The notes under the pieces were generated by a model. It ran no database searches. It saw only the letters and a program-made list of their open reading frames with translations, and had not been told where the DNA came from. This document shows, piece by piece, positions 11,480 to 16,186 of a stretch of 64,000 nt of DNA (its first letter is position 1; each line of letters begins with the position of its first letter). The DNA is taken from the NCBI RefSeq assembly GCF_001054325.1, contig NZ_JVVM01000020.1:248001-312000 (forward strand), read 5' to 3'. The position numbers and the translations under genes were made by a program. This DNA comes from Corynebacterium vitaeruminis. Its GTDB lineage: Bacteria > Actinomycetota > Actinomycetes > Mycobacteriales > Mycobacteriaceae.

Positions 11480-11582
11480 AGGTCTTTTTAGAGAGCGGGA
11501 AAGGAAAATCTGCTCCCGTCGCCTTCTACTGTTGTGAGCCCACCATGGACTGGTCGAACCTGCCTGCCAACTATTTCCCGAA

Positions 11583-11679
11583 ACGCAAGAAACCCCCAGT
11601 CCAACTTTCGGAGCCAGTTCATCGCGAACTTGGGGTTCCAACTTAGTGGCGGGGATGGATTCGAACCAATGACCTCTGG
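11583..11679 (-). repeat. Left copy of the tRNA 3'-half repeat (island boundary, tRNA remnant)
   Basis: Read on the minus strand this stretch holds the 3' part of an initiator tRNA (from the 3' side of the anticodon stem, CCAGAGGTC, through the T arm and acceptor) plus its downstream hairpin and ACGCAAGAAACCCCC. It matches the intact tRNA-fMet and its terminator at 16064-16146. Similarity stops abruptly at 11679/11680, inside the anticodon stem, and one acceptor C is missing. It is either a disrupted second tRNA gene or the attachment-site duplicate of an element that integrated into the tRNA 3' end. Confidence 0.75.
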
Positions 11680-11691
11680 TACAAATGCCAG

Positions 11692-11782
11692 ACAGGGCGA
11701 TAGCGTTAGTCTCCCCATTACCTTTAGGCTATCCCCGATAATGGGGATAGTCGCTGGGCCGGGTATGGCTGAATCGCCCTGT
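11692..11782. ncRNA. Structured non-coding region upstream of IS110 transposase (candidate bridge RNA)
   Basis: A ten-base perfect inverted repeat (11692-11701 with 11773-11782) encloses AGCG/CGCT (11702-11705 with 11752-11755) and a nine-base stem (11712-11720 with 11739-11747). A competing eight-base hairpin (11729-11736 with 11743-11750) overlaps the last stem. IS110 elements encode a structured bridge RNA in the non-coding end next to the transposase gene, and this region begins where tRNA similarity ends and runs toward the transposase start. Its function here is inferred from position and structure only. Confidence 0.45.
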
Positions 11783-11950
11783 AGTTTCATGATCCGGGAG
11801 TGTTGTCGCCCGGCACCAGGACGTTCGTTGACAGCTAATGGGGCACGGCCGGAATCTCTAGGTCTCCTTGTAACGTGGGTGCTCGCAGCGAATGTCCCGA
11901 CACCCGACACCAGCGACTGGCGTATCTACCCAGTTTGCTAGGAGCCCGCT

Positions 11951-12280
11951 ATGTCGCCGAATCACCCCATCGACATTTTCCTCGGCATGGATGTCGACAA
12001 ATCTGAACACCAAGCATGTGCACTCGACCGACAAAGAAAGAAACTCTTCGCCAAGCCGCTTCCACAACTAAAGTCAGGCCTCGCGACACCCTTTGACAAC
12101 CTGCAACAACACGGCCATGTACTTGCCGTTGTAGATCAGCCCAACACCATTGGCGCCTTTCCTACTGCAGTCGCCCGCGCCCGAGATTGCCAGATCGGCT
12201 GTTTGCCAGGGCTTGCCATGCGCAAAGCTGCTGACCTCTACCCGGGCCATACTGATAAGCATCGAAGAAATCCAAACTAG
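11951..12280 (+). mobile_element. IS110-family transposase, N-terminal fragment
   Basis: The 109-residue frame starts with FLGMDVDKSEHQACALDR, the RuvC-like DEDD start of IS110 transposases, and continues through LAVVDQPNTIGAFPTAVARA and CLPGLAMRKAADLYPG. After LYPG, where the family continues with a KTDARDA-type segment, the sequence turns into HTDKHRRNPN and stops. A full transposase is near 400 residues, so the C-terminal serine-recombinase-like half is lost and the element cannot move by itself. The ATG at 11951 follows GGAG by five bases. The deletion junction is near 12245. Confidence 0.85.
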
Positions 12281-12362
12281 CTCGGCTTTTGTTACGCCTC
12301 AGTAGATGGGAAAACCCGAGGCACATTAACGCCCGAATGTACTACCAGATGGGCTTGGAGGA

Positions 12363-12536
12363 TTGACAGATAAAACCAAGCGACGCGTAAGGAATGCTGC
12401 TGCGTCGGCAACCACCAAGGGAATTGTCCTCACGGACGACGACATTGAGTGCGGGTATCGAATTGTGCAAGGAAAACTCGACGTAGATGACTACATCGAA
12501 CGTATTTGCTCTACTGCGCTGACCAATGACCGGTGA
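12363..12536 (+). CDS. VbhA-like antitoxin of a Fic toxin module
   Basis: A 57-residue protein with the layout of VbhA-type antitoxins: a basic N-terminal helix (KRRVRNAAASATTKG) and a C-terminal three-helix part (DIECGYRIVQGKLDVDDYIE). These antitoxins block the Fic active site with a Ser-x-x-x-Glu-Gly motif; here the aligned position reads S15-A-T-T-K19-G20, so the inhibitory glutamate is a lysine (codon AAG, 12417-12419). The next frame starts inside its last codons, as in real VbhA-Fic operons. The TTG start is the only one available and its GGAGG lies only one base away, so the start is uncertain. Confidence 0.5.
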   Translation: MTDKTKRRVRNAAASATTKGIVLTDDDIECGYRIVQGKLDVDDYIERICSTALTNDR

Positions 12537-12630
12537 AGCAATGAGCGAGCGTGACCTATGGGACGCGTTGACTTACCCCGGGACCTCAACTTCACCCTCG
12601 TTTAGGATGATCCTATCTAATATATGTTAA
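12526..12630 (+). pseudogene. Fic-domain toxin, N-terminal remnant
   Basis: The frame overlaps the antitoxin stop (ATG at 12526 or 12541) and begins MSERDLWDALTYPGTS. Fic toxins commonly start with a Y.PGT.VLRNKLG-type segment, and the sequence loses all similarity just after PGT, ending at TAA 12630 after 35 codons. The catalytic HPFREGNGR region is absent. This is what remains of the AMP-transferring toxin that the upstream antitoxin would have held in check. Confidence 0.45.
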
Positions 12631-12674
12631 TTTATATATCTATCAGTCATTGGTAAGCCTTGGAGGGGTATTTT

Positions 12675-13326
12675 ATGCGGAAGGTGCGAAGGCAAACCGT
12701 TAAGGCTAATGGCCGGGATTGGAATAGCGTTTCTTTCGTTCGTTCAACTAGCCACATCGGCGCACGCTGCAGGAAATATCGAAGAGCTAACGCGGCTTAG
12801 GCTTCTAGAGTGGCGAGTCAAGCCCGATGTACCCAATGAGTCACTGTTAAGTGCTGCGTTCTTGTCGTGGAATCCGGATCCGGGGATACCGCCTTTTTCA
12901 GCGTGTGGCCCTGCAACAGATAAATTTAAGACTGTAGCAAGCTGGCAGTACGTTGACCTGGGAACACCTCAGGATTTTATGCATGCGAACGAGGTGACGT
13001 TGCGCTGTGGAGACAGTTCACATGGGTTAAAACATATCCGCCAGAACCGCCCCGAATGGTCGTCGCTTGCAGCCATCGAAGGGAAGGATGGCGATGCCCT
13101 AATTCGTATTGCAATCGATGCTGCGCTAGAGGGGACCACCTGGTCAAAGAGAGTCTCACCTTCAACTGCAAATCGTGATGACAAATTCTGCGCTTCGGCA
13201 CAAATCTACTTAGTCGATAAAGTTCGCGGGATAATTGTTCAGACACTTGAACCATCAAAATTTGTGGCTGAACACGGTCATCATGTCATCACTGCTTACC
13301 CTACTAATACGTCGAAGTGTAAATAG
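12675..13326 (+). CDS. Putative secreted nuclease-like toxin, with a leader frameshift
   Basis: The main frame (ATG 12709) encodes 205 residues: a hydrophobic stretch ending SAHA-AG like a Sec signal, then a domain with CGDSSHGLKHIRQNRPEW (His109 in KHI) and a C-terminal VITAYPTN. This pattern, a His-containing helix plus a terminal [I/V]TAYP strand, is seen in BECR-fold RNase toxins of polymorphic toxin systems. The good start is ATG 12675, with GGAGGGG six bases before it and a basic n-region MRKVRRQTVKA; it is out of frame by one base (an extra A near 12708). Removing that A gives a complete signal peptide. So the gene may be frameshifted, or translated from 12709 with a poor leader. Four cysteines are present in the exported part. 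The acidic gene two bases downstream may be its immunity gene. Confidence 0.45.
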
Positions 13327-13327
13327 C

Positions 13328-13645
13328 ATGAGTTTCGCGCAAAAGTTTATTGACGCTCTAAATGCAGACGACTCAGTGGATGCCGACCATGCTGCTTTTA
13401 TCGGGGCTGACGGTGATGCTCGTTTGGTGCGATACCAAGGAACAGACCTACCGTGGCAGATTCCTGTACGCATCAAGGAGCTTGGCTGGAAGCGGATGGA
13501 ATATATCACCAGCAACCCCGAGGGCGTGTATTTCAGCCTTTTCCTGGACGAGGAGCTGTACAAACTCGATGAAAGGGAATGGATACAACCGGAGCTGTGT
13601 CTTAGTGATGAAACCGGGCTGTGGCATTTGGTGGAAACCGCCTAA
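13328..13645 (+). CDS. Small acidic protein, putative immunity partner
   Basis: A 105-residue acidic cytoplasmic protein (DALNADDSVDADHAAFIGAD, ELYKLDEREWIQPELCLSDE) with no signal peptide or membrane span. I do not recognise the family. It begins one base after the stop of the putative secreted toxin, the usual position for an immunity protein, and its strong acidity would suit binding a basic nuclease. The function is inferred only from position and composition. Confidence 0.5.
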   Translation: MSFAQKFIDALNADDSVDADHAAFIGADGDARLVRYQGTDLPWQIPVRIKELGWKRMEYITSNPEGVYFSLFLDEELYKLDEREWIQPELCLSDETGLWHLVETA

Positions 13646-13804
13646 CTCGCGCGTCAAAACCCCACATGCATAGTAGATAGGGAGATGCACAAGGTTATGG
13701 CTCGGAAACCGAAGCAGCGTCATACGGGCAAGACGGTCAGCTTCTTCCTTTTGAAGCTCGCGCGCACGACGGCGGGCTTGTGCCCTTCTGTCTTTAGTCA
13801 CCAT
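13646..13804 (-). pseudogene. Possible remnant starting MVTKDRRAQARRRARELQ
   Basis: On the minus strand the ATG at 13804 opens a frame that starts MVTKDRRAQARRRARELQKE, a basic helical beginning of the kind seen in small plasmid or phage proteins. The frame stays open to 13448, but that part runs antisense through the acidic gene and is probably not coding. It may be the stump of a lost gene. The bases between 13646 and 13874 show nothing else recognisable. Confidence 0.25.
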
Positions 13805-13874
13805 GCCCAAAGAAAAACACCGCGCAGAAACAAAGTTAAGACGCTGCCCCCCCCACAACAGGCGCTAACACTCG

Positions 13875-14228
13875 CTAATTTCCATCTGGACTGCGTATAT
13901 CAACGGAGGATGTGGTCAGTCCTATGCTGTTTCTGAACTGCTCAGGTTCAGCATAAACCGGTAGAAGACAAGCGTCGAAAAACTTCGCTCCATCAAGTAC
14001 CGCACCCCGAAAATCAACCTCGTTAAGGAATGCGCCTTCAAAGTCTGCATCAATTAGGTTCGCATTCCTCATGTTAGACCACGCCAGCATTGCTCCTCGG
14101 AAGGAGCATCCCTGGCACTGGGAGCCTTCAAAATCAGCGGCGGATAAATCATAGTTTGAGAAATCTTTACCCCTCAGGTCTTTTCCTCGTAATTCTCGAC
14201 GGGAGGATTCAGACATTTCCCTGTACAT
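13875..14228 (-). CDS. Pentapeptide-repeat protein
   Basis: A 117-residue protein with about ten pentapeptide units of the A(D/N)LXX type: LRGKDLRGKDFSNYDLSAAD, then FRGAMLAW, NANLIDADFEGAFL and FRGAVLDGAKF. Such repeats fold into a right-handed beta helix; some members mimic DNA and protect gyrase, many have no known role. The ATG at 14228 has AGG seven bases upstream. The C-terminal 30 residues lack the repeat. It is alone on this strand in the island. Confidence 0.75.
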   Translation of the reverse strand: MYREMSESSRRELRGKDLRGKDFSNYDLSAADFEGSQCQGCSFRGAMLAWSNMRNANLIDADFEGAFLNEVDFRGAVLDGAKFFDACLLPVYAEPEQFRNSIGLTTSSVDIRSPDGN

Positions 14229-14348
14229 CGAGCACCTACTTCAGCTAAGGAGAATTGACTACCCAGTCAGGACAGCGTCCGTGTACCCATGGGCAGTATG
14301 TTGTTACAACACCATATGGTCGCCCATCGGTGATCTTGTTGAATCCGA

Positions 14349-14749
14349 CTACTGCCAGAACATCCCGAGTCTCCAGTTTCTGGCATTTCCTGATCGGCCC
14401 CCATCCCTCAGATCTATCGGCAATCGGTATTCGACTCTATCTCCGCCGTTAAAGGTTTCAATCTTGGGAGCATACTGGGTAACTACTCGCGGTGCATTAG
14501 CACTAAGCCCGTGTTTTGACTGAATCTTTGATTGAGCACGTTCACGCATCACTACTCGTCGGCCATTCTTGTCGTCCCACTCTCCGACAATCCGATAGCC
14601 GTCTCTCCCCCGCCTGACATAAAGGCTGTTCTAGTGCCACGTAGAAGTAATTCCGAACTTAACGGATCTTCTGAGACCGGCATTCCTTCAATGCTTCCAA
14701 AATCCGTTACCTCCGAAGATGCCTCAGCGATTGGAGTATGAACCATCAT
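14349..14749 (-). pseudogene. Unknown gene split by a frameshift
   Basis: Two overlapping minus-strand frames look like halves of one gene. The first (from ATG 14749) reads MVHTPIAEASSEVTDFGSIE and onward to SSELLLRGTRTA; the second, one base out of frame, continues LYVRRGRDGYRIVGEWDDKN, then QSKIQSKHGLS and a stop at 14349. A one-base deletion near 14625 would join them into a protein of about 132 residues. I do not recognise the family. Confidence 0.35.
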
Positions 14750-14979
14750 TGCGCCGAATGCGGCCTAAGCAATTAGGTCTACTCTTTTTCTCATTCGTGC
14801 ACTTTCTCTCGTGTACTAATTTCAAAGACCTGTGCTTCAGCACATCCTCCAAATCTCTATCAGTACATGCCTTACCGTCTTTGTGGTGTTTTTCACATTG
14901 CTCCTAAAGAGCAACACACCTCTGGCAGATGTACATCTGCAACTTCTTAGAGGCTGACCAGCGCGAACGCGCAGGGGTG
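14750..14979. other. Non-coding stretch in the island
   Basis: Between the split gene and the inverted repeats there is no convincing reading frame. The sequence looks richer in A and T than the surrounding genome, and I see no feature in it apart from GCTCCTAAAGAGC near 14900, a weak dyad. Confidence 0.4.
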
Positions 14980-15042
14980 AAAAATTGCTTAAGTTCGTCA
15001 TCGTTCAGACCTCAAAAGTAGGTCTTAACTTCTGCAATTTTT
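14980..15042. repeat. Nested inverted repeats upstream of the relaxase (possible oriT region)
   Basis: AAAAATTGC (14980-14988) is complementary to GCAATTTTT (15034-15042), and inside it GACCT (15008-15012) pairs with AGGTC (15020-15024). The repeats end 18 bases before the relaxase start. TrwC-type relaxases act on an origin of transfer with inverted repeats close to their gene, so this is a plausible oriT remnant, but no nick site can be read. Confidence 0.35.
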
Positions 15043-15060
15043 CTTCCTAGCGTCACGCTC

Positions 15061-15964
15061 ATGATGTCGATTCGAGTGGTCAACGCAGTAGATGGGTACG
15101 CCTATCTCCTACGCAACGTTGCCACTGCCGACGTCGGCTCAGGGACAAAAACCAAACTCGGTGACTACTACCAAGCCACCGGTACTCCCCCCCCTGGCCG
15201 CTGGTACGGGCGCGGACTCACCGGCCTCGACTCCACTGCCAATCACAGCGGGCACAACTGTCACCCAGGAGCTCATGGCCGCACTCTACGGTGAGGGGCT
15301 TCACCCCGAGGCCGATTCCCGTATCGCCAACGGCGCATCCATTGCTGACGTACAACTCGGTCGCGCCTACCCGTTCTACTCCGGCCGGCATCAGGTACTA
15401 AAGGAGCTACCGACCATGGAGAAACAGTTCCGCTACCACGCTGGGCGCAGGCTCACCGAGCAGGAACGAAACACTATCGCGGTCGATGTCGCACGCAAGC
15501 ACTACAGCGACGAAACCGGCTACTCAAATGCGACGCCAAAGGAGATTCTGGCGTGGGGCAACGAGAAGAAAAACTCCGTTCGCCTAGCTACTGCTGACTT
15601 CGACCTGACGTTTTCACCGGTGAAGCCTATCTCTGTGCTGTGGGCACTCGGCAACGAGGAGATGCGGAAAACCATTGAGGCCGTTCACAATGAATGTGTC
15701 TCAGCTTGCCTGGATTGGCTCGATGAGACAGCACTGCGTACCCGCTGCGAGGTCAATGGAGTCAAGAAGTTAACGCGCACGCGCGGCCTCATTGCCGCAC
15801 AGTTTGTCCACTATGGCCCCCGTAGTGGTGCTCCGGATCTTCACACACACTGCCTGGTTTCAAACAAAGTCCAAGGCCCCGACGGCCAATGGCGCAGTGT
15901 TGATTCACTCTCGTTAATGAAGTCTGCGGTTACTGTATCCACCTACTACAACGCACTGATTAAG
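15061..15964 (+). pseudogene. TrwC/MOBF-type relaxase, frameshifted and truncated
   Basis: The N-terminus MMSIRVVNAVDGYAYLLRNV and LGDYYQATGTPPPGRWYGRG is the start of an actinobacterial TrwC-type conjugative relaxase, with the catalytic tyrosine region near residue 13-16. Near 15235 the reading moves to another frame, which continues ITAGTTVTQELMAALYGEGL, FSPVKPISVLWAL and the metal-binding LHTHCLVSN. An indel of one base separates the parts. After YYNALIK (about 15964) the sequence changes into a different gene. A full protein is over 1000 residues with a helicase half, which is missing, so this is a dead mobilisation gene. Confidence 0.8.
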
Positions 15965-16060
15965 ATTCGGGGAGAAATTTCCTGGTCGCTTAGCAACTTG
16001 TATCGTGTTGCCGACTTCTTTGAAGTCGATATCACCGACCTCCTCCCCCATCGCGTTCCC
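15965..16060 (+). pseudogene. C-terminal fragment of an XRE-type HTH regulator
   Basis: Fused in frame after the truncated relaxase is IRGEISWSLSNLYRVADFFE followed by VDITDLLPHR. This is the second half of a helix-turn-helix domain of XRE regulators, of the kind often beside integrases of actinobacterial elements. The N-terminal half is gone. It ends just before the tRNA terminator, at the right edge of the island. Confidence 0.55.
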
Positions 16061-16063
16061 CAG

Positions 16064-16146
16064 ACGCAAGAAACCCCCGGTTCGCTTTCGCGAACCGAGG
16101 GTTCCAACTTAGTGGCGGGGGCTGGATTCGAACCAACGACCTCTGG
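16064..16146 (-). repeat. Right copy of the tRNA 3'-half repeat (inside intact tRNA-fMet and its terminator)
   Basis: This is the partner of 11583-11679. It starts with the same ACGCAAGAAACCCCC, includes the terminator hairpin, GGTTCCAACTTAGTGGCGGG and the T arm, and continues into the complete tRNA. The two copies enclose about 4.4 kb. Confidence 0.75.
16073..16105 (-). terminator. Terminator of tRNA-fMet
   Basis: AACCC-CC-GGTTCGC (from 16073) and GCGAACC-GA-GGGTT form a strong hairpin with a TTTC loop, followed on the minus strand by TTTCTT. It lies directly after the tRNA 3' end. Confidence 0.75.
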
Positions 16147-16186
16147 GTTATGAGCCCAGCGAGCTACCGAACTGCTCCACCCCGCG
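16113..16186 (-). tRNA. Initiator tRNA-fMet (CAT)
   Basis: On the minus strand the 74-base gene folds into a complete cloverleaf: acceptor CGCGGGG with CCCCGCC, D arm with AGTTCGGTAG, anticodon stem CTGGG-CTCATAA-CCCAG with anticodon CAT, and T arm GTTGG-TTCGAAT-CCAGC. The three G:C pairs next to the anticodon loop and the unpaired first base (C1 facing C72) mark it as an initiator. CCA is not encoded; the genome has CTA after A73, so the end must be added by the CCA enzyme. Confidence 0.92.

What the first reader, a model, noticed from the sequence alone, without database searches (positions are those of the whole stretch)
11692..11950. Structured non-coding region upstream of an IS110 transposase: possible bridge RNA
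A 91-base region with a ten-base outer stem and two competing inner hairpins lies immediately after the point where tRNA similarity stops and before the IS110 transposase. Known: IS110 elements carry a bridge RNA in the non-coding end next to the transposase that pairs with target and donor. Inferred: that this is one and that its target loop once matched the tRNA sequence at 11670-11690.
Basis: partly seen in the sequence, partly recalled or inferred. Interest (0 to 1): 0.62.

Follow-up and report, generated by a model that had tools for sequence, protein, structure and literature searches.

The report
Decayed IS110 bridge RNA beside tRNA
A broken copy of a jumping gene in a Corynebacterium still carries the gene for the guide RNA that once told it where to jump; its intact relatives jump into runs of the DNA letter C, not into tRNA genes.

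Summary
Window 11713-12272 is the 5' part of a decayed IS110-group element, inserted in a remnant of an integrative element at tRNA-fMet. An intact copy (403-aa transposase) is in the same genome; 48 of 242 genus genomes match the noncoding end, some over only 40-55 bases. On 32 representatives the RNA fold (5' stem-loop, closing stem, target loop, donor loop) covaries (22 of 44 pairs). The left donor guide matches the element's own right end (exact 10-mer in 34 of 39 copies), and guides and ends co-change in distant relatives. tRNA similarity stops at 11679; the target loop does not match it. Relatives, including ISEc20 of E. coli, sit in oligo-C tracts: 5 of 7 Corynebacterium and 4 of 5 E. 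coli sites with an uninterrupted counterpart show five or more C. The window copy is a relic; the oligo-C target and a composite transposon are interesting by-products.

The parts
11713..12272 (+). Decayed IS110-group element: left end, bridge RNA region and N-terminal part of the transposase; the 3' two thirds and the right end are lost
   Evidence: Homology to intact own-genome copy L002 starts at 11713 and ends about 12247 in DNA, 12272 in protein, weak at the end; same start in relatives
11713..11722 (+). Left end of the element (right donor), CCCCATTACC; relatives mostly CCCCGTTACC or NCCCGTTACC
   Evidence: Boundary shared by relatives with unrelated flanks
11729..11750 (+). 5' stem-loop of the bridge RNA
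   Evidence: Alignment A1, helix 1, 88.8% of cells paired, 2 of 7 pairs with both-side changes
11750..11757 (+). 5' strand of closing stem GTCGCTGG
   Evidence: Helix 2, 92.8% paired, 3 of 8 pairs with both-side changes; coordinates
11910..11917 (+). 3' strand of closing stem CCAGCGAC
   Evidence: Helix 2; coordinates
11758..11814 (+). Target-binding loop domain
   Evidence: Helices 3 and 4 in relatives; the window keeps a GCCGGG/CCCGGC stem
11771..11784 (+). Candidate left target guide GAATCGCCCTGTAG (C-rich part CGCCC); inferred, not shown
   Evidence: GCCC kept in most of the family and longer in ISEc20 (TGCCCCC)
11791..11802 (+). Candidate right target guide GATCCGGGAGTG; many relatives have CCGGGGGGTG, complementary to a C tract; inferred
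   Evidence: C-tract sites
11819..11835 (+). 5' strand of donor-binding-loop stem
   Evidence: Helix 5, 7 of 13 pairs with both-side changes
11881..11897 (+). 3' strand of donor-binding-loop stem
   Evidence: Helix 5; coordinates
11837..11848 (+). Left donor guide, decayed (AATGGGGCACGG; relatives AATAGGGACACGG)
   Evidence: Relatives' ATAGGGACAC equals their right end
11847..11864 (+). Apical hairpin of the donor-binding loop
   Evidence: Helix 6, 6 of 8 pairs with both-side changes
11870..11879 (+). Right donor guide GTAACGTGGG, complementary to relatives' left end CGTTAC
11951..12280 (+). N-terminal fragment (109 aa) of DEDD IS110 transposase
   Evidence: PF01548; NF033542 below its cut-off; aligned to L002 protein
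11666..11703 (+). Flank, not element: last codons (NDLWYKCQTGR) and stop of a small gene of the host integrative element; 11666-11679 shared with tRNA-fMet (junction of the two)
   Evidence: 94% match to L159/L167 where the 125-aa ORF is intact; stop at 11701-11703
11692..11701 (+).
12363..12536 (+). VbhA-like antitoxin ORF downstream of the relic (probably host-element sequence beyond the lost right end)
   Evidence: PF18495 E = 6e-4, below the curated cut-off; a Fic gene follows the same small gene in L159, but the DNA alignment of this stretch to L159 is weak

Best explanation
The locus is the fossil of an IS110-group insertion sequence. Its left noncoding end encoded a bridge RNA of about 190 nt: a 5' stem-loop, then a closing stem around two domains, a target-binding loop and a donor-binding loop. 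In the intact family the circular element would join its right end (ATAGGGACA-CCCC) to its left end (GTTACC). [quoted passage not shown] The target loop carries C-rich and G-run segments, and the recombinase inserts the element into an oligo-C tract of about five C. In the window the element went into such a tract nine bases past the stop codon of a small gene belonging to an integrative element that had itself inserted at tRNA-fMet. Afterwards it lost its 3' two thirds, and its left donor guide and left end mutated. Shown from sequence: element boundary, fold covariation, donor-guide complementarity and co-change, C-tract sites. Inferred: the circle, which target-loop bases pair with the tract, that the RNA is made, and that this copy was once active.
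For: Intact copy L002 in the same genome, 403 aa, passes NF033542 'IS110 family RNA-guided transposase' at 235 bits (cut-off 140), with PF01548 and PF02371. Covariation on a MAFFT alignment of 32 representatives: 90.5% of cells paired, 22 of 44 pairs with both-side changes, 109 such cells against 37.1 in shuffles, covariation score 0.251 against 0.138 (0 of 500 shuffles reach it) and 0.05-0.07 when slid. Left donor guide: exact 10-mer in own right end in 34 of 39 copies, many of them near-identical and so not independent. Shuffles of the noncoding end reached that 10-mer in 2-5 of 1000 in the four tested copies that have it, and both guide matches together in 0-1 of 1000. Co-change: L223 ATAGGGACCC in guide and end; L234 and L236 ATAGAGAC in both; L023 guide GTAATG with left end CATTAC; TurkishDelight ATAGGGGCA in both; ISEc20 AATAGGGG in both. 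Uninterrupted site of the window insertion in L159/L167: AGTCT-CCCCC-TCCCC. C5+ tracts at four more Corynebacterium sites and four of five ISEc20 sites.
Against: The window copy cannot work as it stands: transposase truncated, right end lost, left donor guide with a deletion and a change, left end CATTAC no longer matching its own guide GTAACG. Its fold alone is not unusual (z = -1.6, 11 of 200 shuffles as good). Guide and end disagree in 5 of 39 copies, one being the own-genome copy L002. The right donor guide match (6 nt) is weak alone: 60-241 of 1000 shuffles reach it in the four good copies; L002 (both matches in 99 of 1000) and L025 (940 of 1000) are not significant. L023's own right end was not found. 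For two of seven Corynebacterium sites the counterpart (83% and 75% identical) has no clean C5 (L208, L152), nor has one of eight at site A (L207), nor one of two at an E. coli site (L265, four C). The E. coli queries held four C as placeholder and I fetched one or two of the top four listed records per site, which favours C-bearing counterparts. No expression data. No Rfam family matches the region.
Confidence: 0.9

Rival explanations
1. One reading: the RNA is the 91-base stem-loop 11692-11782 and its target loop recognised the tRNA-fMet sequence at 11670-11690.
For: The 91 bases fold very stably, z = -5.2; tRNA remnant and IS are close neighbours; a 10-nt flank match is expected in well under one of 64 copies.
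Against: The element starts at 11713 in the relatives read. The 5' arm is flanking coding sequence present without the IS in L159/L167, with one change in the arm. Such a stem occurs in 1 of 64 copies. Target loop against tRNA stretch: longest match 4 nt, chance level.
Confidence: 0.03
2. The structured region is an attachment-site feature (arm sites or inverted repeats) of the integrative element at tRNA-fMet, not an IS part.
For: A tRNA-fMet 3' fragment and an intact tRNA-fMet bracket 11575-16186, as in an integrated element.
Against: The sequence from 11713 on recurs with unrelated flanks and is followed by an IS110 transposase match in 65 of 71 copies; homologues L159/L167 of the flanking gene lack it.
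Confidence: 0.03
3. The family does not use its RNA for target choice: the C tract is chosen by the protein or by DNA shape, and the target loop is vestigial.
For: Left and right flanks show no strong consensus beyond C; the loop is nearly constant in the family, so loop and target cannot covary and pairing is not shown.
Against: The loop keeps C-rich and G-run segments in actinobacteria and in ISEc20 of E. coli, as a guide to a C tract would; the donor guides co-change with the ends.
Confidence: 0.2
4. The window copy still makes a bridge RNA that acts in trans with the intact transposase of L002.
For: Both are in one genome and most of the fold is kept.
Against: Right end lost, so the junction that supplies the promoter in IS621 (PMC11208160, passages) cannot form; donor guide decayed.
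Confidence: 0.04

Closest known systems
ISEc20 (IS110 family, E. coli; so named in record LC567836)
   Same: 52% protein identity over 97%; left end CCCCGTTACTTT, right end AATAGGGGCACCCCCC, left donor guide AATAGGGG, right donor guide GTAACGTGG, target loop with TGCCCCC and CCGGGGGG, insertions in C tracts
   Different: Different phylum and sequence; intact and common (1116 of 5426 E. coli genomes have a place covering at least 80% of it), whereas the window copy is a relic
IS621 bridge RNA (Durrant et al. 2024, PMC11208160)
   Same: RNA in the left noncoding end, 5' stem-loop then target and donor loops, left guide pairing with the bottom strand and right guide with the top strand, discontiguous right donor guide (sections 6, 7, 12 and 21 read, plus passages)
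   Different: By phmmer only the C-terminal part of the protein matches. This family adds a stem enclosing both loops (against the published description; no structures compared here), and its target is a C tract rather than an 11-14 nt sequence (length recalled)
ISEc21 seekRNA (Siddiquee et al. 2024, PMC11187229)
   Same: IS110-type, noncoding region upstream, guide RNA with bottom- and top-strand matches (sections 12 and 13 read)
   Different: ISEc21 uses a defined linear target; seekRNA processing was not tested here

Membership tests
IS110 group (bridge RNA in the left end) | DEDD plus Transposase_20 recombinase | tested here: met
   Intact L002: PF01548, PF02371, NF033542 above cut-off; window copy keeps only the N-terminal part
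IS110 group (bridge RNA in the left end) | Long noncoding end upstream of the transposase, shorter one downstream | tested here: met
   L002: 244 bp before ATG, about 124 bp after stop; transposase downstream of the left end in 65 of 71 copies
IS110 group (bridge RNA in the left end) | Structured RNA with 5' stem-loop and two guide loops, supported by covariation | tested here: met
IS110 group (bridge RNA in the left end) | Donor guides complementary to the right-end/left-end junction | tested here: met
   34 of 39 exact for the left guide; co-changes; decayed in the window copy
IS110 group (bridge RNA in the left end) | Target guides complementary to the target | tested here: inconclusive
   C-rich and G-run segments fit the C tract, but loop and target are both constant, so no covariation test is possible
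IS110 group (bridge RNA in the left end) | Insertion without target duplication, core shared by target and donor | tested here: inconclusive
   No duplicated flank outside the C run seen, but the run hides the exact crossover; 4-5 donor C inferred at the Corynebacterium sites
IS110 group (bridge RNA in the left end) | Promoter formed at the circle junction | tested here: inconclusive
   TTGAC[A/G] kept near the right end in the copies printed, TTAACA in L106; a TAnnnT (TACCTT) in the left end would be about 20 bp away, longer than usual; an exact junction pattern had 0 hits in 242 genomes
IS110 group (bridge RNA in the left end) | RNA expressed and bound by the recombinase | not testable with these tools
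   Needs RNA and protein work
IS1111 group | Noncoding RNA downstream of the transposase | tested here: not met
   RNA lies upstream
tRNA-targeting IS | Insertion in or at tRNA genes | tested here: not met
   No whole tRNA at the junction in 60 loci scanned; uninterrupted window site lacks tRNA sequence

The most novel reading that the evidence does not exclude
A widespread IS110 lineage, from actinobacteria to ISEc20 of E. coli, has a bridge RNA whose target loop is frozen on oligo-C tracts. It thus works as a nearly generic inserter needing only about five C, while donor guides and ends stay matched. In corynebacteria it has built an active composite transposon that carries a metal-uptake ABC transporter.
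Probability: 0.65. Interest if true: 0.6.

Novelty: new member of a known kind. Interest (0 to 1): 0.42.

Why it matters
The window copy itself is a fossil and of little weight. What it led to matters more. Natural IS110-type elements are described as each choosing its own specific target (PMC11187229, abstract); this lineage appears to need only a short run of C, which would make it a natural low-specificity bridge recombinase and a way to test how little target pairing the mechanism tolerates. It also gives donor-guide co-changes that support the bridge RNA model in a divergent branch, and a natural composite element that suggests the system moves cargo.

Tried and rejected
Tandem or circle junction search: exact pattern over 242 genomes, 0 hits. 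Palindrome family search: 0 of 242, but that pattern did not fit the one known palindrome, so it says nothing. Rfam at permissive thresholds: nothing at the window site; in three relatives only a riboswitch and a weak snoRNA hit outside the element. tRNA-targeting idea: rejected. Outer stem as a functional element: rejected. Reading the solo 40-nt left-end fragments (L170, L172, L174-L176) as mobile mini-elements: not supported; the L174-L176 copies share a longer stretch.

Row handling. One search kept only copies whose alignment reached the first bases of the left end and keyed them by flanks, giving 71 rows; matches that start further in (about a quarter of its list) were not used for the boundary, and L178 and L179, which align further in, do not show it clearly. 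In one search, 38 rows include 6 right-hand copies of composites and lack site A; without the 6, 32 sites remain with inferred target C runs of 3 (1), 4 (5), 5 (12), 6 (7), 7 (4), 8 (1), 9 (2), assuming 4 donor C. Joined flanks: 16 Corynebacterium sites were queried (6, 10); 6 gave an uninterrupted counterpart that I read, plus the window site, so 7; further, more divergent matches were not read. In one search, 30 loci were scanned: 3 gave no left end, one (L225) a false guide position, and 23 showed a left-guide/right-end match of 8-11 nt. Script failures: rerun. In one search, tRNA genes were found in L025, L085, L104 and L110, roughly 70 to 320 bp from an element end or, in L110, within the expected span.

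Full report
What is in the window. The window lies in a Corynebacterium: close relatives in named records are Corynebacterium and a Corynebacteriaceae L31 leader is present. At 11951-12280 is an N-terminal fragment of an IS110 DEDD transposase (PF01548, E = 7.8e-16). Searching the own genome with 11640-12360 found an intact relative on another contig, L002, 72% identical from 11713 to 12246, with a 403-aa transposase and 244 bp of noncoding DNA upstream. That protein passes NCBIfam 'IS110 family RNA-guided transposase' at 235 bits against a cut-off of 140. A second relative, L003, lies elsewhere in the own genome.

Where the element starts. 48 of 242 genus genomes match the noncoding end, some only over its first 40-55 bases. 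With a query that included the flank, homology to the own-genome copies began at 11713, and the bases before that point are unrelated from copy to copy. This is confirmed directly. That is the uninterrupted insertion site of the window copy. In the window the same codons end at the stop 11701-11703. The tRNA-fMet resemblance (compare 16118-16146) ends at 11679 and the gene resemblance begins at 11666, so 11666-11679 is the junction left by the integrative element that inserted at tRNA-fMet. The relic is present, with one difference in 400 bases, at the same place in a second genome (L180), so it is an inherited fossil.

The 91 bases do fold very stably (-47.9 kcal/mol, z = -5.2), because a conserved hairpin (11729-11750) sits inside a 10-bp match between flank and element. 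Only 1 of 64 copies has such a match; swapping flanks among copies reaches 10 nt in 13 of 4032 pairs, 9 of them with the window's own flank. So chance would give it in roughly 0.06 to 0.2 of a 64-copy sample; I take it as a coincidence because the arm is coding DNA outside the element.

The RNA. I aligned 32 representatives of the noncoding end. RNAalifold found 39 pairs, 18 with compensatory changes. A structure named from L002 (44 pairs in six helices) gave 90.5% paired cells, 22 pairs with both-side changes, 109 such cells (37.1 in shuffles) and covariation score 0.251 (0.138 in shuffles; 0.05-0.07 when slid). The measure 'further pair types' was not significant (93 of 500). The structure was drawn from one row, which helps it against slid versions; the both-side changes are the stronger evidence. 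The window's own RNA is not unusually stable (z = -1.6). A transposase match follows the left end within 420 nt in 65 of 71 copies; five of the six misses are cut off by the end of the contig or locus, and one (L046) has none in 1.7 kb.

Donor guides. In the main cluster the right end reads ...TTGACAAAAACATAGGGACACCCCC and the left end CCCGTTACC. The noncoding end holds ATAGGGACAC, identical to the right end, and GTAACGTGGG, the reverse complement of CGTTAC plus a G run, on the two sides of the donor loop. The 10-mer is exact in 34 of 39 copies with both ends (many near-identical); the five exceptions include L002 itself. Dinucleotide shuffles rarely reach it (2-5 of 1000) in four copies tested; the 6-nt right-guide match alone is reached in 60-241 of 1000, both together in 0-1 of 1000; L002 and L025 are not significant. 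Distant relatives were taken from 298 order genomes, of which 44, own genome included, match at E <= 1e-60, among them 32-37% relatives that I did not examine. Of 30 loci scanned (29 from that search, 44-62% identical, and L023), 23 show the guide/end match. They also supply co-changes: L223 (ATAGGGACCC in both), L234 and L236 (ATAGAGAC in both), Streptomyces L023 (GTAATG with CATTAC; its right end was not found), phage TurkishDelight (ATAGGGGCA in both) and ISEc20 (AATAGGGG in both). This is the layout described for IS621, including the discontiguous right donor guide (PMC11208160, sections 6, 7, 12 and 21 read, and passages).

Targets. Flanks of near-identical elements share no strong consensus: 18 left and 13 right flanks in the main cluster, at most about 0.4 bit at any position outside the C run; over all rows (63 left, 33 right) the first two bases after the right end are C in 33 and 32 of 33, the third in 26, and C and T are mildly favoured on the left. 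Uninterrupted sites explain this. Of seven Corynebacterium sites with a counterpart that I read, five show a run of at least five C at the insertion point: the L047 site in all 12 counterparts read; site A in 7 of 8; site B in 2 of 2; site C in 1 of 1; the window site in 1. Two sites (E and L044) have only counterparts of 83% and 75% identity, without a clean run. In the window sequence 0.31% (plus strand) and 0.14% (minus strand) of positions lie in or at such a run. For ISEc20 five E. coli sites were tested through eight counterparts: four sites have a counterpart with 5-7 C (at one of them the second counterpart has 4), and the fifth has an interrupted run (CCCCGCCC or CCCCAACCCCC). Those queries held four C as placeholder and only the top records were fetched, so they lean towards C-bearing counterparts. 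The target loop keeps a C-rich segment and a G run in actinobacteria, ISEc20 and TurkishDelight, which fits guides to a C tract; since neither loop nor target varies, pairing there is inferred.

Composite transposon. In five genomes two direct copies flank a 2.7-kb segment; the whole 5.85-kb unit is at least 99.8% identical and its outer flanks differ in all five. The segment encodes a metal ABC transporter: an ATPase, and one 720-aa frame with ABC-3 permease and ZnuA-type binding domains. Sites A, B and C, whose uninterrupted counterparts show a C tract, are insertions of this whole unit. A sixth genome (L266) has the segment plus one copy at the site where the own genome has a single copy.

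Literature. Searches for IS110 family with poly-C (no paper), for bridge RNA with Corynebacterium, for IS110 and seekRNA with cytosine, for ISEc20 with target, and for relaxed specificity returned no paper that describes a C-tract target in its title or the start of its abstract (listings only). ISfinder and most subscription journals are not held, so prior knowledge of the ISEc20 target cannot be excluded. PMC11187229 (sections 12 and 13 read) notes that a number of family members give no target consensus.

Verdict. The finding's core claim, a bridge RNA next to an IS110 transposase, is correct; its coordinates, its outer stem and its tRNA target are not. The window copy is an inactive fossil of a known kind of system. 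The lineage's oligo-C targeting is the part worth following.

Noticed in passing
L267-L271; L266; L118: A 5.85-kb composite element, IS110 copy - metal ABC transporter genes - IS110 copy in direct orientation, at least 99.8% identical with different outer flanks in five genomes; a sixth genome has segment plus one copy.
   Followed up: partly
window 11575-11679 and 16056-16186: A repeat covering the 3' half of tRNA-fMet and its downstream terminator brackets a degenerate 4.4-kb integrative element with a TrwC relaxase fragment (15092-16153), a pentapeptide protein and a VbhA-like ORF.
   Followed up: partly
L166 about 413-466: At the place homologous to the window insertion another genome has a perfect palindrome of about 54 bp made of the IS left end and its inverted copy, with no IS.
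   Followed up: partly
L170, L172, L174-L176: Isolated copies of the first 40-45 nt of the left end without the rest of the element.
   Followed up: partly
L045 and L057 insertion sites: Some copies sit inside inverted repeats that look like terminators or palindromes, where the C tract is part of an arm or the loop (flanks printed).
   Followed up: no
L256: In E. coli O145 RM9872 an ISEc20 copy interrupts an RNA ligase RtcB family gene.
   Followed up: no
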